Source: Bacteroidia bacterium
GTDB lineage: Bacteria; Bacteroidota; Bacteroidia; UKL13-3
Assembly: GCA_025454875.1 (NCBI GenBank)
Contig: JALONP010000012.1
Coordinates: forward strand, 1 to 64,000
Length of the DNA: 64,000 nt
Reading direction: 5' to 3'
Shown: in pieces, positions 1 through 7,177 of the stretch
Layout of the letters: each line of letters begins with the position of its first letter
Numbering within the stretch: the first letter of the stretch is position 1
Notes under the pieces: generated by a model
The model's input: the letters and a program-made list of their open reading frames with translations, nothing else
What the model was told of the DNA's origin: nothing
Database searches by the model: none
Position numbers and translations under genes: made by a program

Positions 1-1
1 A

Positions 2-766
2 ACCTTAAACAGTTGCAAAGACGAATGCCAAGACCCACGCAATCCTGATTGCGAAAACTACAACCCATGTATTGATGCCAAGCCAACCAGTGCCGCTTTC
101 ACCATTAAAGAGGCTACCGTTCAACAAATCAATTCTCCAAACTTAACAGATTTTTTAATGGATACTGATAGTTGTTATATGAGTAGTATTTTCTTCGAAG
201 CCACACAAGCAGATGCTGATAGTTTTATTTGGCAAATTGGCACCGAGCCACAGCCCAGGTATGGCAAGCAAGTAAATGTGGTGTTTCCAGATAATTTAAG
301 GGGAACCAACTTTAATGTTCGGCTCATTGTAAAACGCAAACCCAATACCCGTTGCTTCCCAACCGATGATGGGATAGATACCCTTACCCGCAGGTTTTAT
401 TTTGTGCGGTATAACGAACCCTTAAGTTGGGAAGGCTCGTATTATGGCAGCGATGACGACAAACCCGATAGCATGTATACCATTGTATTGGGGCATAGTT
501 ATGATGTTGCAGAGGAAGAAGATATCATAAAAGTTGTTGGGATACCTAGGGGGTGTAGAGATACTATTAATGAATGGATTCCTGGGGTTGTAACAACATA
601 TAAAAATATTGGATTTGAGAGAGTTGGTATTGATTGTAGTGCCAAAATAGTCTTAGGAGTGTATAATGAAGGCAATAAGTATAGAATTATTCAAGGATAC
701 AGAACATTTACAAATGGGGTATTGACCAAAAAAAATAGAATATTTACTGGAATTAAAATCAATTAG
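2..766 (+). CDS. Lipoprotein paralog 1 of a tandem family (5' end outside window)
   Basis: Frame is open from base 2 (TLNSCKDECQDP...) and matches the N-terminal region of ORFs 3927-4745 and 4968-5804; the supplied ORF starts at an internal Met (158). Lipobox-like LNSC as in the paralogs. Confidence 0.85.
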   Translation, partial: TLNSCKDECQDPRNPDCENYNPCIDAKPTSAAFTIKEATVQQINSPNLTDFLMDTDSCYMSSIFFEATQADADSFIWQIGTEPQPRYGKQVNVVFPDNLRGTNFNVRLIVKRKPNTRCFPTDDGIDTLTRRFYFVRYNEPLSWEGSYYGSDDDKPDSMYTIVLGHSYDVAEEEDIIKVVGIPRGCRDTINEWIPGVVTTYKNIGFERVGIDCSAKIVLGVYNEGNKYRIIQGYRTFTNGVLTKKNRIFTGIKIN

Positions 767-768
767 TA

Positions 769-3477
769 ATGATGAAAAAATATTTATTAATCATATTTGC
801 AATACTTTATTTGACCAGAACTATTGCCCAAAATACAGAAGAAAATTCGCCTGATCGCGGGCAAGACCCATGTGAACGAACGGCCCAAATAGAAACCAAT
901 CCATTTAATCCCAAAAATACAGAGTGGTATACCCAACGTAATAGGTTTAACTGGATGGATTATGTGACCCTTCTTAATGGTGGTAAAATGCGCATCCCTT
1001 ACTTTGATAATAACAATCGCTATGGGAATGGGCTAAACAGTATATTTTACTTTAATAATCCTTTTTTTGATGAAGATGAGGACTACTTAAAACACATCAA
1101 TTTATTCTCCAATACCACCAATTTGCAAAACCAACTTGTAGTGGATAATGACTATAGCAATTTTCACCGACTCGTTGATGAAATGGATATTACTAGTGTT
1201 GAGCACGGCTGGGAATTGTTATGGAAATTTGATGGATACGAAGCTGATGGTGTAACACCGGTGAGTGGTGTTGCTGGATCTGATTTTAAATCCATGAATT
1301 TTATCTTATACAACCGATACACGGGCATGTTGCGTTGGTTTATGGCACCTAAAGTAAATGGAAACACTTATAACGAGCTTGAGCCGCTGATTGAATTTAA
1401 AGACAATCAGGTAGCATCACTTTTTCGGAACTATAATGGACTTGACCAAGCTTTGGATAAAACCACTGAGGTGGTGAGAATAGCCTCACCTGCACAAACA
1501 AGTTTTAGTTTACCGTACTTTTCAATGGCCGATTTTAATATTAGTTATGATCCATGTGTATGTTATTTCGATTCTAAACTAAGCTATTCATTAAACGCTA
1601 ACACTACTGCCAATATTGATTTATATGGCAGACTGGAAGGCACCGGAAAAATGCTGAATGAAAGTGATGCTGTCAACACGGATAGATTGTTAAGTTTGTA
1701 TAAGAATGCAGATAACAACTTCAGAGACCAAGTCAAATACGGATTATTGGAATACAAAAACTATGGTAAATTAGTAGATGATTTTAACAAGTTTAATCAA
1801 AAATCGAATATTTATGATGATGTGTACGGTGCCAGTAAAATCGTAGCAGAAATTGCTGATTTGGGTTTAACTGCAGTTGACCCAAGTAGAGCTGCCTATA
1901 AAAAACTTAAAATAATCAGCAAGTTCACAGGATTTGCCAGTATGCCTTTTAAAACCGATAAAAGTACCAAAAGCCCACCCATGCTCATAGAAGCACAAAT
2001 GACTTTAACAGGACAATTGACTTCTACTACAACACTAAATGGATTTAGTTTCGATATGTTTACCCCAGGTAGTTTTAATACACCAAATAGCATAGATCAA
2101 TTAAATTCTGAGAACGAACCCGACCGTTTTGAGTACCCTGTCTATAACCAAGCCTTGGGTTTGTATGCATTGCTTAAAACACCCCAAAAACAAGTTGGTA
2201 AATTGTCTCCTACTGAGGTAAACATAAATGCGGTTGCACAAACACGGAATAACACGGATATACCTATAACATTTAAACTTGTTGATTCAGTACAACGTGC
2301 CTACACTTTTGAACCCCAAATTGGATTTAAGCTCATTGAAAATTTGCAATACACCTTTAACCCTGCTGCTCAAATTAATGCCGAAGCAACCCAAATAGAA
2401 GTGGCTTGGGGAGTAGAAGTAAATAAATTGAATAATCTTGGTGTGATTGGTGGAGACATGTGGAATTTTACATCACCCAATATGAAACGTGCATATGATT
2501 ATGAGTTCGATAAAAATACAAAAGAAAAACGAGCTGTGTTTTTTAGCGAGTTTATGCCAATTGAATGCATCACGCAGTTTGTACCTATTTTTAATTATAG
2601 TGTAAAACCTGAAGCACTTAGAATTTTGAGTACTATTTTTCCATCTGACCAGCAGAACAAGGATCTTATTCAACAGAAACTCTTAGGTGCAATCGCTTTT
2701 CATCGGCAGAGACTTGATGGTAGTAAACCCCAAATAACCAATACGTTTTTAAAAGTAAACATCACCTACAGGTATAACCGCCCTGATGGTAATGGCTTAA
2801 ACGATATTGTGCATTTTCAAACCTTTACCTATTTGGTTGAAGGGAACAATGCAAACAATGCCATTTTAAACAATATCAATACCGCAGCCATGAATGCACC
2901 TTCGGAATTAACTATTGATGGCAAACATTACACAAGCAACGAAACCATTTACGTTTGGGACGAACTCACTTTAAAGGGTAATATTACTGCTGACCCAGGT
3001 GTTATTGTTCAATTCAAATCAGGAGGAACCATCACAGTTGATCCGGAGGCCAACATCGATCCAGAAATTGTATTGATGATTGAAAAACCCGGATATTGCC
3101 AAGCCACCCGCATTTATCCCACAGCTGTTACACGTGAATTTTGCAACAGTCAAGCTACGTATAAAGGCAATCAGCTCTCAAAAGCAGATGGCGCTAATCG
3201 GGTGAACGAGAATAAACTTATCGAATATAAAGCGATGGTTTTCCCAAATCCAGCTTCCCAATATATTAGCATTCAATCGGCTCAAAAGGCGATTATTGAA
3301 ATTACCATAACTGATATCAATGGCAAATTAGTTAAAACACAAACAATTGATACCAAAGATGTTTTTCAATACCAAATGGAAATAGAGGACCTAGACAATG
3401 GGATGTATTTTGTTACCACAAAAAGTGAGGCAGGTACATCTGTATCTAAAATCATTAAAACAGGTAACCAAAATTAA
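769..3477 (+). CDS. Large secreted protein with T9SS type A C-terminal sorting domain, function unknown
   Basis: Signal peptide MMKKYLLIIFAILYLTRTIAQ; C-term VFPNPASQYISIQ...ITDINGKLVKT...LDNGMYFVTTKSEAGTSVSKIIKTGNQN typical of T9SS CTD. Starts 2 bp after the lipoprotein stop. Confidence 0.85.
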   Translation: MMKKYLLIIFAILYLTRTIAQNTEENSPDRGQDPCERTAQIETNPFNPKNTEWYTQRNRFNWMDYVTLLNGGKMRIPYFDNNNRYGNGLNSIFYFNNPFFDEDEDYLKHINLFSNTTNLQNQLVVDNDYSNFHRLVDEMDITSVEHGWELLWKFDGYEADGVTPVSGVAGSDFKSMNFILYNRYTGMLRWFMAPKVNGNTYNELEPLIEFKDNQVASLFRNYNGLDQALDKTTEVVRIASPAQTSFSLPYFSMADFNISYDPCVCYFDSKLSYSLNANTTANIDLYGRLEGTGKMLNESDAVNTDRLLSLYKNADNNFRDQVKYGLLEYKNYGKLVDDFNKFNQKSNIYDDVYGASKIVAEIADLGLTAVDPSRAAYKKLKIISKFTGFASMPFKTDKSTKSPPMLIEAQMTLTGQLTSTTTLNGFSFDMFTPGSFNTPNSIDQLNSENEPDRFEYPVYNQALGLYALLKTPQKQVGKLSPTEVNINAVAQTRNNTDIPITFKLVDSVQRAYTFEPQIGFKLIENLQYTFNPAAQINAEATQIEVAWGVEVNKLNNLGVIGGDMWNFTSPNMKRAYDYEFDKNTKEKRAVFFSEFMPIECITQFVPIFNYSVKPEALRILSTIFPSDQQNKDLIQQKLLGAIAFHRQRLDGSKPQITNTFLKVNITYRYNRPDGNGLNDIVHFQTFTYLVEGNNANNAILNNINTAAMNAPSELTIDGKHYTSNETIYVWDELTLKGNITADPGVIVQFKSGGTITVDPEANIDPEIVLMIEKPGYCQATRIYPTAVTREFCNSQATYKGNQLSKADGANRVNENKLIEYKAMVFPNPASQYISIQSAQKAIIEITITDINGKLVKTQTIDTKDVFQYQMEIEDLDNGMYFVTTKSEAGTSVSKIIKTGNQN

Positions 3478-3491
3478 ACACCAAATTCTTT

Positions 3492-3525
3492 CATCGCCCC
3501 AACTGACGAGTCAGTTGGGGCGGTG
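3492..3525. terminator. Palindromic hairpin, probable terminator
   Basis: CATCGCCCCAACTGA-CGAG-TCAGTTGGGGCGGTG: 15-bp stem (one G-T wobble), 4-nt loop, between convergent genes. Confidence 0.65.
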
Positions 3526-3535
3526 TTGTTTAAAG

Positions 3536-3811
3536 CTATTTACTAAACCTTTCCCTCCATTTAGCTTCATCTACTTCGCTTGAGTTTATATCAGTTAAAA
3601 AAGGAATACTGCAACCCAAAGCTTGGGCAATTTTAACAATGGTCTTAAACTTCAAGTCACCCGCTTTGCGTTGGTAACCGCAGTAGGTTGATTGTTCAAT
3701 ATCCAATTTGATTGCCATTTGGTTTTGGGTAATGCCTAAAAACAGGCGAATGGATTTAATACGTCTTGCAAGTAACGGAAGGTTGGGGGATTTGTAAATA
3801 AAATATGACAC
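3536..3811 (-). CDS. XRE-family helix-turn-helix regulator
   Basis: LARRIKSIRLFLGITQNQMAIKLDIEQSTYCGYQRKAGDLKFKTIVKIAQALG resembles the HTH_3/XRE fold. Confidence 0.75.
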   Translation of the reverse strand: MSYFIYKSPNLPLLARRIKSIRLFLGITQNQMAIKLDIEQSTYCGYQRKAGDLKFKTIVKIAQALGCSIPFLTDINSSEVDEAKWRERFSK

Positions 3812-3926
3812 TTTACAGGTTTAAGCCTATACAAAAACAAAATAAATAGTTAAATACTTGTAGGTCTAAGTTGATATAGCAGACCGAAATACATGCGCTT
3901 AAACAACAACTTAAACCTTAACGCAT

Positions 3927-4745
3927 ATGTTGCACAAATACCTATTCTTACTTTTACTAGGCAGCAGCGCTGTTTTACTAACCTTAAACAGTTGCAAAGA
4001 CGAATGCCAAGACCCGCGCAACCCTGATTGCGAAAACTACAACCCCTGCATTGATTCTAAGCCAACCAGTGCCGCCTTTACCATTAAAGAGGCTGATTAT
4101 CTAGAAATGATTTCGCCTAACTTAAAAGACTTTTTAATTGATACTGATTCTTGCTATGGAAGAAGTGTTTATTTTGAAGCCACACAAGCAGATGCTGATA
4201 GTTTTATTTGGCAAATTGGTACCGAGCCAGAGCCAAGGTATGGCAAGCAAGTAAATGTGGTGTTTCCGGATAATTTAAGGGGAACCAATTTTAATATTCG
4301 GCTCATTGTAAAACGCAAACCCAATACCCGCTGCTTCCCAAACGATGATGGTATTGATACAGTGATTCGCTCATTTTATTTTGTACGGTTTAATGAACCC
4401 CTGAGTTGGGAAGGCACGTATTATGGCAGCGATGACGATAAACCCGATAGCATGTATACCATTGTATTGGGGCATAGTTATGATGAAGTATGGGATAGAG
4501 ATAAGATAAAGATTATTGGTTTACCAAGGGGATGTAAAGACACTGTTAATGAGAGTTTTTCGTTACCTATAATAAACTACACCAATATTTGGTGTGAACG
4601 AAGGGGACTTGATTGTGAAGGTAAAATTGTTAGAGGAGTATTCAATAACGGTAACAATTACACCATTAAGCAAGAGTATCGAACGTTTATTGATGGTGCT
4701 TTCACTACAAAAAACAGAATATTCACTGGAATTAAAATCAATTAA
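3927..4745 (+). CDS. Lipoprotein paralog 2 of a tandem family
   Basis: Signal peptide with lipobox LTLNSC; long near-identical blocks shared with paralogs 1 and 3. Confidence 0.85.
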   Translation: MLHKYLFLLLLGSSAVLLTLNSCKDECQDPRNPDCENYNPCIDSKPTSAAFTIKEADYLEMISPNLKDFLIDTDSCYGRSVYFEATQADADSFIWQIGTEPEPRYGKQVNVVFPDNLRGTNFNIRLIVKRKPNTRCFPNDDGIDTVIRSFYFVRFNEPLSWEGTYYGSDDDKPDSMYTIVLGHSYDEVWDRDKIKIIGLPRGCKDTVNESFSLPIINYTNIWCERRGLDCEGKIVRGVFNNGNNYTIKQEYRTFIDGAFTTKNRIFTGIKIN

Positions 4746-4747
4746 CC

Positions 4748-4981
4748 ATGAAAAGATATTTATTATTGCTGACTCTTTGCAGTTTAGTAGGTGTACCAGC
4801 ACAATCTCAAACCACCGAAGAAAATGATACATTAAATACACCTCATAACGGAACTGAACCCTGCGAACGCCCGACACAAATAGAAACCAACCCATTTAAT
4901 CCAAAAAATACAGAATGGTATACCATGCGCAACCGATTCAATTGGATGGATTATATTAAAATTCAAGATGAAAATACTTAG
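4748..4981 (+). pseudogene. 5' remnant of the T9SS-secreted protein (77 aa)
   Basis: MKRYLLLLTLCSLVGVPAQSQTTEEN...CERPTQIETNPFNPKNTEWYTMRNRFNWMDY aligns to the N-terminus of the 902-aa protein, then stops, overlapping the next lipoprotein start. Confidence 0.75.
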
Positions 4982-5804
4982 ACACAAATACCTATTCTTA
5001 CTTTTACTAGGCAGCAGCGCTGTTTTGCTAACCTTAAACAGTTGCAAAGACGAATGCCAAGACCCGCGCAACCCTGATTGCGAAAACTACAACCCCTGTA
5101 TGGATGCCAAGCCAACCAGTGCCGCGTTTACGATTAAAGAAGCCACGTATACCCAAATTATCGAACCACGTTTAGCAGATTTTTTAATAGATACTGACTC
5201 AGTTTATTTTAGAAGTCTTTACCTCGAAGCTACACAAGCAGATGCTGATAGTTTTATTTGGCAAATTGGCACCGAGCCAGAACCAAGGTATGGTAAGCAG
5301 GTAAATGTGGTGTTTCCAGATAATTTAAGGGGAACCAATTTTAATGTTCGCCTTATTGTGAAACGCAAACCCAATACCCGCTGCTTCCCAACCGATGATG
5401 GGATAGATACAGTGATTCGCTCATTTTATTTTGTACGGTTTAATGAACCCCTGAGTTGGGAAGGCACGTATTATGGCAGCGATGACGACAAACCCGATAG
5501 CATATATACTATTGTATTGGGGCACAGCTATGATGCGGCAGAACAAGAAGATAAACTTACTGTATTCGGGGTGCCAAGGGGATGTCAGGATACGATTAAT
5601 CGGTTACTTGGTGATTTTGGTGGAGGATTTGTGGGGTATAAAAACGTATTATTTGTATTAAGCGGAACGGATTGTAATGGTAAAATTGTTAGAGGAGTAT
5701 TCAATAACGGTAACAATTACACCATTAGGCAAGAGTATCGAACGTTTATTGATGGTGCTTTCACTACAAAAAACAGAATATTCACTGGAATTAAAATCAA
5801 TTAA
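4968..5804 (+). CDS. Lipoprotein paralog 3 of a tandem family
   Basis: MKILRHKYLFLLLLGSSAVLLTLNSCKDEC...; same framework as paralogs 1 and 2. Confidence 0.85.
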   Translation: MKILRHKYLFLLLLGSSAVLLTLNSCKDECQDPRNPDCENYNPCMDAKPTSAAFTIKEATYTQIIEPRLADFLIDTDSVYFRSLYLEATQADADSFIWQIGTEPEPRYGKQVNVVFPDNLRGTNFNVRLIVKRKPNTRCFPTDDGIDTVIRSFYFVRFNEPLSWEGTYYGSDDDKPDSIYTIVLGHSYDAAEQEDKLTVFGVPRGCQDTINRLLGDFGGGFVGYKNVLFVLSGTDCNGKIVRGVFNNGNNYTIRQEYRTFIDGAFTTKNRIFTGIKIN

Positions 5805-5806
5805 CC

Positions 5807-6079
5807 ATGAAAAGATATTTATTATTACTGACTATTTATTGTTTAGTAGGTGTACCAGCACGATCTCAAACCACCGAAGAAAATGATGCATTAAATACAC
5901 CTCATAACGGAACTGAACCCTGCGAACGCCCTACACAAATAGAAACCAATCCATTTAATCTAAAAAATACAGAGTGGTATACTCAACATAACAGGTTTAA
6001 TTGTATGGATTTTGTTACCACAAAAAGTGAGTCAGGTACATCTGTATCTAAAATCATTAAAACAGATAACCAAAATTAA
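5807..6079 (+). pseudogene. Internally deleted remnant of the T9SS-secreted protein (90 aa; N-term joined in frame to CTD tail)
   Basis: Residues up to RFNCMD match the 902-aa N-terminus; FVTTKSESGTSVSKIIKTDNQN matches its C-terminus. Confidence 0.8.
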
Positions 6080-6093
6080 ACACCAAATTCTTT

Positions 6094-6127
6094 CACCGCC
6101 CCAACTGACTCGTCAGTTGAGGCGGTG
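6094..6127. terminator. Palindromic hairpin, second copy of the array terminator
   Basis: CACCGCCCCAACTGA-CTCG-TCAGTTGAGGCGGTG; same stem as 3492-3525 with the loop reverse-complemented. Confidence 0.65.
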
Positions 6128-6314
6128 TTGTTTAAAGCTATTTGCGAAATGAATCATTCCAATTAATTCAGATCACGATATAATAGGTAAATTGGAATAC
6201 GACTTCCAACAGTGTTACAAAAGGAGTATATAGTTAAGCGTTTTAATGCGGCTAATAGCAAAAGATAATTTCGATATGATGTTTGTAAAGCCAATTTTCA
6301 TGTTAAAAGTAGTT

Positions 6315-7133
6315 TTATCCTAGCCATCCCTCAAAGCAAACCAAAGATTTCAATTGTTCAGGTAGTTGTGGTTTTTGTGTAAACAAGCCAAATATGGCCG
6401 AGCCGCTTCCGCTCATGCTGGCGTAAGTTGCGCCCTTTGCGTACAACAGGTTTTTGTATTCACGCAACTCAGGGAATGTTTCAAATACCGAATCTTCAAA
6501 ATCATTAAATACATGGTTTTTCCATTCGCTCACAGGTTGGCTTAACCAATAACGAATGGATTCTGATTCAATCCATGTTTCCCTTCTTTTTACATTGCGG
6601 TACGCCAATGCAGTGTTGCTATGCACGTTGGGATACAACAACACCAAATAATATCCAGATAGGTTAATGTTGAACGGTTGCAATTCATGCCCTTTTCCTA
6701 ATAAATACGAAGGTTCGTTTTTGATAAAAAAGGCACAATCACTTCCCAATTGTGCTGCGTAGTTTTCCAATTGTTCAGTAGCTAAACCTAACTCAAATTT
6801 TTGGTTTAATAACTTAAGCATAAATGCAGCATCGCTGCTACCACCGCCAAGGCCAGCTCCCATGGGAACTATTTTGTGCAGATGAGTATGAATAGGGGGA
6901 ATGGAATGCGATTGTTTAAGTAAATGGTAAGCACGTACAATTAAGTTATCTGCTGTATTGCCTGCAATGGCTAATCCACTTGTGGTAAATGTGTCACTCG
7001 TTGCTGGTATTACTTCAAGTACATCAGCAAAGGTTACCGGATAAAAAACGCTTTCTATGGTATGAAATCCATCGGTTCGCCTATTGATTACATGCAAACC
7101 CAAATTGATTTTTATATTCGGGAAACAAATCAT
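6315..7133 (-). CDS. ispE: 4-diphosphocytidyl-2-C-methyl-D-erythritol kinase
   Basis: MICFPNIKINLGLHVINRRTDGFHTIESVFYPV and GAGLGGGSSDAAFMLKLLN GHMP kinase motifs. Confidence 0.93.
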   Translation of the reverse strand: MICFPNIKINLGLHVINRRTDGFHTIESVFYPVTFADVLEVIPATSDTFTTSGLAIAGNTADNLIVRAYHLLKQSHSIPPIHTHLHKIVPMGAGLGGGSSDAAFMLKLLNQKFELGLATEQLENYAAQLGSDCAFFIKNEPSYLLGKGHELQPFNINLSGYYLVLLYPNVHSNTALAYRNVKRRETWIESESIRYWLSQPVSEWKNHVFNDFEDSVFETFPELREYKNLLYAKGATYASMSGSGSAIFGLFTQKPQLPEQLKSLVCFEGWLG

Positions 7134-7177
7134 TCCAAAACTATATTTGCATGCAATTTGCACTATTCTTTTAATAT

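What the first reader, a model, noticed from the sequence alone, without database searches (positions are those of the whole stretch)
1..6140. Tandem array of lipoprotein + T9SS-cargo cassettes with intact and gutted copies
Seen: three lipoprotein genes, each followed within a few bp by a copy of the same secreted-protein gene. Only the first secreted copy is full length (902 aa); the others are 77 and 90 aa. All three lipoproteins stay open with lipoboxes visible in copies 2 and 3. Inference: selective retention of the lipoproteins with decay of the large partner resembles polymorphic toxin/immunity or phase/antigenic-variation loci, with the lipoprotein as the cognate partner of a T9SS-exported surface or effector protein. 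The array continues upstream of the window, so more copies may exist.
Basis: partly seen in the sequence, partly recalled or inferred. Interest (0 to 1): 0.65.

Follow-up and report, generated by a model that had tools for sequence, protein, structure and literature searches.

The report
Displaced surface-protein cassettes leaving lipoprotein arrays
This bacterium carries a swappable gene pair, an outer-membrane lipoprotein and a large exported surface protein; newer pairs appear to have displaced older ones and cut the big gene to a stub while every old lipoprotein was kept, a pattern typical of antidote genes kept against rivals' toxins, although no toxin activity has been shown.

Summary
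The window starts at a contig end; contig C5 joins it through an exact 85-bp overlap and shared synteny. The full locus is HTH | tail-like protein | lipoprotein | cargo stub | lipoprotein | intact 902-aa T9SS cargo | HTH | lipoprotein | stub | lipoprotein | stub, inserted between two genes that are neighbours in three relatives. A third, mosaic copy lies elsewhere in the genome.

The lipoprotein and the cargo core are families absent from Pfam and NCBIfam. In the window's taxonomic family all 19 cargo genes have a lipoprotein directly upstream, while 21 of 40 lipoproteins are extra (Fisher p = 3e-5). Array lipoproteins stay open and under purifying selection (omega about 0.2).

The mechanism is visible in congeners. 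Between a 97%-identical lipoprotein 1 and a 93%-identical barrel gene, one genome has cargo Y and another has lipoprotein 2 + cargo X, swapped at short anchors. Stubs look like remnants of displaced cargos.

This works like orphan-immunity arrays (V. cholerae T6SS, esaG/tipC). Membership in toxin-immunity systems is unproven: no toxin domain was found, and some lineages have the cargo without a lipoprotein.

The parts
1..766 (+). Lipoprotein copy 1 (lipo_1); its first codons lie on contig C5
   Evidence: lipo profile hit
769..3477 (+). Intact 902-aa cargo: signal peptide, conserved N-half (GWEL...LYNRYTG...YDPCxC), variable C-half, T9SS type A sorting domain (residues 824-896)
   Evidence: PF18962 E=3e-14; TIGR04183
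3491..3547 (+). Palindromic terminator-like element; one of three copies in the genome, which bound the two units (other copies C5:2249-2305 and window 6093-6149)
3536..3811 (-). XRE-type HTH regulator, divergent from the second unit (copy 2; copy 1 on C5, 95% nt identity)
   Evidence: (PF01381); divergent regulators recur in relatives
3812..3926 (.). Divergent intergenic (promoter-bearing, inferred) region, shared with C5 and C34; the tail-like gene present at this point in unit 1 is deleted here
3927..4745 (+). Lipoprotein copy 2 (lipo_2, 272 aa): LNSC lipobox followed by KDE; variable patches at residues 53-80 and 184-264
4748..4981 (+). Cargo stub (77 aa): signal peptide plus a short stretch, broken after FNWMDY; stop overlaps the next lipoprotein start
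4968..5804 (+). Lipoprotein copy 3 (lipo_3, 278 aa), LNSC lipobox
5807..6079 (+). Cargo stub (90 aa): first ~62 codons fused in frame to the last ~23 codons; large internal deletion at a 15-nt imperfect repeat
6093..6149 (+). Third copy of the terminator-like element; right end of the array, followed by ispE (6315-7163, minus)

Best explanation
A swappable, regulated surface-protein module of Bacteroidia. Core genes: a divergent HTH or response regulator, a secreted tail-like protein, an outer-membrane lipoprotein, a ~850-1000-aa T9SS cargo, and in some genomes a small beta-barrel. The lipoprotein and cargo behave as a cognate pair that is replaced as a block by incoming, unrelated alleles. 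Recombination uses short conserved anchors: the leader/start region of the gene after an existing lipoprotein, and the last codons of the cargo. When a new pair enters, the old cargo is lost or cut to a 5' stub while the old lipoprotein is kept. Repetition, plus a tandem duplication of the whole unit and later deletions, produced the array in this window. Kept lipoproteins are still selected for at the protein level without an intact cargo next to them. The most economical reading is that they act in trans, like immunity proteins, against cargos made by relatives that still have the displaced allele. The cargo would then be an antagonistic or recognition protein acting at cell surfaces. Shown: gene content, empty site, cassette swaps, stubs, the 19/19 versus 21-extra asymmetry, purifying selection. 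Inferred: cognate binding, surface exposure of the lipoprotein, immunity function, toxicity of the cargo.
For: Empty site: in G001, G002 and G015 DedA-349aa-ispE are contiguous with 2 to ~100 bp where this genome has ~9 kb. Pairing asymmetry: in 53 genomes of the family 19/19 cargo N-domains have a lipoprotein directly upstream while 21/40 lipoproteins are extra, p = 3e-5, or 1.6e-4 with the extras of this genome left out. Direct displacement: L167 (G072) is lipo1-cargoY-barrel; L068 (G027) is the same lipo1 (97% nt) - lipo2 - cargoX - barrel (93% nt), cargos 32% identical; L164 is a third allele. Anchors are visible letter for letter. Stubs of another lineage than the intact cargo: this array (0.56 identity over ~61 aa), C34 (0.34), L132 (0.35 over 141), L160 (0.37 over 129). 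Leader/body mosaic: within a genome leaders match and bodies differ (C34a vs array 0.70/0.25); between genomes the reverse (C34a vs G015 0.35/0.77; array vs G006 0.33/0.73). Selection: omega 0.18-0.30 between array lipoproteins, with variability concentrated in two patches. Published precedents for the process: V. cholerae effector-immunity displacement (PMC5361080) and recombination among tandem esaG/tipC immunity genes, TipC having a predicted lipoprotein signal (PMC9484751).
Against: No toxin domain in any library, and no discrete polymorphic tip: the cargo is homologous along its length and ends in a sorting domain. Some lineages have tail-like + cargo without a recognisable lipoprotein (L154, L157, L158), which is hard to square with an obligatory immunity gene. 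In others the adjacent lipoproteins are of other families (L155, L156) or lie downstream (L161, L162). Lipoprotein upstream of the effector is the less usual order. The clearest displacement pair comes from MAGs (G072: 88% complete, 4% contamination), so chimeric assembly or mixed strains are possible. Low omega in the short stubs (about 0.2) is not expected if they are inert; it may reflect translational coupling or earlier history.
Confidence: 0.48

Rival explanations
1. A diversifying surface adhesin or recognition module, not a weapon: the T9SS cargo and tail-like protein form a surface structure, and the lipoprotein is its outer-membrane anchor, adaptor or secretion partner. Alleles are swapped because surfaces are under selection from phages, predators or partners.
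For: The tail-like + cargo pair is broader than the lipoprotein. The cargo has a T9SS sorting domain and no recognised enzymatic or toxin fold. The lipoprotein model is an Ig/PKD-like domain plus a barrel-like domain, with only weak, non-significant resemblance to factor H binding protein and SGBP-B. A required anchor also predicts no orphan cargo.
Against: Does not explain why old lipoproteins are retained under purifying selection after their cargo is displaced, nor why lipoproteins rather than cargos accumulate.
Confidence: 0.32
2. Recombinational diversification of the lipoprotein itself: the lipoproteins are the selected surface antigens or receptors, and the cargo stubs are by-products or translational-coupling linkers.
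For: Two hypervariable patches between conserved blocks; leader/body mosaicism; genomes with several tandem lipoproteins and no adjacent cargo (L057, L094); stub frames kept open with coupled starts.
Against: In congeners the lipoprotein body is replaced together with the cargo as one block; every cargo in the family keeps a lipoprotein next to it. No silent, promoterless store was found.
Confidence: 0.15
3. Ordinary tandem duplication and decay of a dispensable surface operon, with retention of lipoproteins by chance.
For: Unit 2 is plainly a duplicate of unit 1 with two deletions.
Against: Lipoprotein omega of about 0.2 at dS 0.4-0.66; 0 orphan cargos against 21 extra lipoproteins across the family; stubs belong to a different cargo lineage from the intact cargo.
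Confidence: 0.05

Closest known systems
Vibrio cholerae T6SS orphan-immunity arrays formed by sequential displacement of effector-immunity modules (PMC5361080)
   Same: New pair replaces the old effector, old immunity-like genes are kept in an array, effector remnants persist, homology anchor at the swap site
   Different: T9SS cargo instead of T6SS effector; a lipoprotein gene upstream of the cargo instead of an immunity gene downstream; toxicity and neutralisation not shown here
Tandem esaG / tipC T7SS immunity genes (PMC9484751)
   Same: Strings of paralogues with conserved blocks and variable patches that recombine; TipC has a predicted lipoprotein signal sequence
   Different: Firmicutes, unrelated sequences, effectors are known toxins
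TANFOR polymorphic toxins of Bacteroidetes (PMC7073777)
   Same: Large Bacteroidetes proteins proposed to be linked to T9SS and interbacterial competition
   Different: No TANFOR (TIGR02542) hit in the cargo; no C-terminal toxin domain; partner is a lipoprotein
T9SS type A cargo proteins (PF18962 / TIGR04183)
   Same: Signal peptide and C-terminal sorting domain present
   Different: The ~800-residue core is an unnamed family with no Pfam or NCBIfam model

Membership tests
Effector-immunity / polymorphic toxin system | Effector carries a recognisable, polymorphic toxin domain | tested here: not met
   Only the sorting domain is recognised by Pfam/NCBIfam; PADLOC none; homology runs the whole length
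Effector-immunity / polymorphic toxin system | Every effector gene has an adjacent cognate immunity gene | tested here: inconclusive
   19/19 in the family; 19/32 class-wide, with some unpaired cargos having other lipoproteins and some having none
Effector-immunity / polymorphic toxin system | Orphan immunity-like genes outnumber effectors and are under selection | tested here: met
   21 of 40 extra in the family; omega 0.18-0.30 in the array
Effector-immunity / polymorphic toxin system | Effector is toxic and the partner neutralises it | not testable with these tools
   Needs expression and competition assays
TANFOR toxins | N-terminal TANFOR domain (TIGR02542) | tested here: not met
   NCBIfam scan of the cargo lists no TANFOR match
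T9SS type A cargo | Sec signal plus C-terminal type A sorting domain | tested here: met
   Sorting domain: PF18962 E=3e-14, TIGR04183 E=6e-12; Foldseek matches mirolase and RemA CTDs. The signal peptide was read from the sequence, not run through a predictor
Bacteroidota surface-exposed lipoprotein | Lipobox followed by an export signal such as K-(D/E)2 | tested here: inconclusive
   CKDE in the array copies tested; 11 of 64 homologues have K(D/E)2 directly after Cys, 58 of 64 an acidic residue within six; the motif was defined in C. canimorsus (PMC5080379)
Phase/antigenic variation locus with silent cassettes | One expression site plus promoterless silent copies, or invertible DNA | tested here: not met
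   Both array units and C34 keep the divergent promoter region; the long inverted repeats found are terminator palindromes

The most novel reading that the evidence does not exclude
A T9SS-exported antagonism system in which a large surface or secreted cargo harms close relatives at the cell envelope and surface lipoproteins give allele-specific immunity, kept as arrays after their cargo is displaced.
Probability: 0.35. Interest if true: 0.85.

Novelty: new variant of a known kind. Interest (0 to 1): 0.6.

Why it matters
Whether the type IX secretion system takes part in bacterial antagonism is proposed but unproven (PMC7073777). Here is a widespread uncharacterised operon family with the evolutionary signature of effector-immunity arrays, exact swap boundaries and natural allele pairs ready for competition tests. 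The lipoprotein and cargo-core families have no Pfam or NCBIfam entry. If the reading is wrong, the locus still shows how T9SS surface proteins are exchanged as matched blocks with an outer-membrane lipoprotein.

Tried and rejected

Mobile element or integrase explanation: the terminator element is not dispersed, the GC content of the array (0.377) is close to that of the flanks (0.389/0.391), and no integrase was seen in the gene lists of the array; not searched further.

Fold-based function: the lipoprotein model is good (pLDDT 91) but has no significant PDB match (best E=2.5e-3); the cargo model is moderate (pLDDT 71) and only its CTD matches. A low-confidence helical region between two long strands suggested a pore former; no match supports that, so it is not claimed.

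Failed calls: the first alignment-based collection scan lacked conserved columns and was repeated with a tighter alignment. A tail-domain alignment failed on frame errors.

Literature searches for this operon found nothing on it.
Full report
Setting. The window is bases 1-64000 of contig C14 of a 2.98-Mb Bacteroidia genome, and window base 1 is the contig end. The other side of the break is contig C5: its reverse complement ends in an exact 85-base match to window 1-85. The flanking genes DedA, a 349-aa T9SS protein and ispE sit side by side in the congener G001 (2 bp between the last two) and in G002 and G015. So C5 and C14 are very probably adjacent, and about 9 kb is inserted between the 349-aa gene and ispE in this genome.

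Anatomy. In order: HTH_a (minus), tail-like 247 aa, lipo_a 264 aa, stub 65 aa, lipo_1, cargo 902 aa, HTH_b (minus), lipo_2, stub 77 aa, lipo_3, stub 90 aa, ispE. A 57-bp palindromic terminator element starts unit 1, separates the units and ends unit 2; these three places are its only occurrences in the genome. HTH_a and HTH_b are 95% identical in DNA. Unit 2 is therefore a duplicate of unit 1 that lost the tail-like gene (about 720 bp) and the interior of its cargo. The latter deletion joined two imperfect 15-nt repeats in frame to give the 90-aa stub. The 65-aa stub ends at an early TAG. A third copy on contig C34 is a mosaic: array-like promoter and leader, a lipoprotein body and stub of another type (closest to G015 contig C6), then an array-like junction and another lipoprotein.

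The protein families. The lipoprotein (about 270 aa, lipobox, Cys-rich linker, conserved W and CFPNDDG motifs) has no Pfam or NCBIfam family and no PDB sequence relative. AlphaFold2 gives a confident model (pLDDT 91) that I read as an Ig/PKD-like domain followed by a beta-barrel-like domain; the PDB search has no significant match (best E = 2.5e-3, factor H binding protein). The cargo is recognised only by its sorting domain. Its N-terminal half is the conserved part.

Distribution. A scan of public species genomes found 59 loci in Flavobacteriales, Saprospiraceae, Cryomorphaceae, Crocinitomicaceae and unnamed Bacteroidia. Profile annotation shows tail-like - one to four lipoproteins - cargo as the recurring order, with tandem triplets in Cryomorpha ignava (L114) and double units in L060 and L123. 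A divergent HTH or response regulator lies upstream in several genomes. Class-wide, the tail-like + cargo pair also occurs without this lipoprotein.

Asymmetry. In 53 genomes of the family, 19 of 19 cargo N-domains have a lipoprotein directly upstream, whereas 21 of 40 lipoproteins are extra (Fisher p = 3e-5). The array lipoproteins are not decaying: omega is 0.18-0.30 overall, 0.06-0.10 in conserved blocks and 0.19-0.37 in two variable patches, with dS 0.4-0.66.

Mechanism of array growth. Three sets of facts point to block replacement. First, leaders agree within a genome while bodies agree between genomes; concerted evolution of leaders by gene conversion would give the same pattern. Second, stubs lie between an older lipoprotein and a newer lipoprotein + cargo of a different lineage in this array, in L132 and in L160; on C34 the stub is likewise of another lineage than the genome's intact cargo, and the lipoprotein after it has no cargo. 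Third, in genus g6 the same locus is seen with different fillings. L167 reads lipo1-cargoY-barrel and L068 reads lipo1-lipo2-cargoX-barrel; lipo1 is 97% and the barrel region 93% identical in DNA, while the cargos are 32% identical in protein. The break points are the start region of the gene after lipo1 and the last eight codons of the cargo. The simplest history is that one pair displaced another cargo and lipo1 stayed. This matches the published displacement model for V. cholerae effector-immunity modules (PMC5361080).

What it most likely does. A gene kept under selection after its partner is gone, in a system where the partner never occurs without it in this family, is what an immunity gene looks like. 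The alternative is a surface adhesin with a required lipoprotein anchor, which explains the missing orphan cargos but not the kept lipoproteins. Against immunity: no toxin domain, full-length homology of the cargo, and lineages with cargo but no lipoprotein. I therefore hold 'works like an orphan-immunity array' as likely, and 'is a toxin-immunity system' as open.

Caveats. The key displacement pair is between MAGs; contig G072:C145 could be a strain variant or a contaminant. The lipoprotein profile was built from the same clade, so distant lipoproteins may be missed in the class-wide count. Stubs show omega near 0.2 over few codons, which may mean a retained role such as translational coupling. 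Surface exposure rests on a motif defined in another species (PMC5080379).

Noticed in passing
L118 (BJGS01000007.1): A record titled Methylophilaceae (Betaproteobacteria) carries the full tail-lipoprotein-cargo operon, its lipoprotein body 94% identical to that of a Bacteroidetes MAG (L105); probably a misbinned Bacteroidota contig.
   Followed up: no
L155, L156 (G130, G159): Tail-like + cargo followed directly by two tandem lipoproteins of a different family: a parallel association of cargo with other lipoprotein types.
   Followed up: partly
L157, L158 (G218) and L154 (G284): Tail-like + cargo pair without any recognisable adjacent lipoprotein; suggests tail-like + cargo is the older core.
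   Followed up: partly
L009 1170-1913 and homologues: The tail-like protein's C-terminal ~110 residues (PDYVF...HLPGI...LLxKIEELTLYILQQQ) have no Pfam match; the domain also occurs in three other proteins of the congener G001.
   Followed up: partly
L009 170-367, window 4748-4981: The two stubs share the same truncation junction yet differ with dN/dS about 0.18 (few codons), as if the short open frame were still constrained.
   Followed up: partly
L010 2-4677: A possible restriction/ATPase gene cluster (381-aa and 1043-aa ORFs) lies about 4 kb upstream of the C34 copy; judged by eye only.
   Followed up: no
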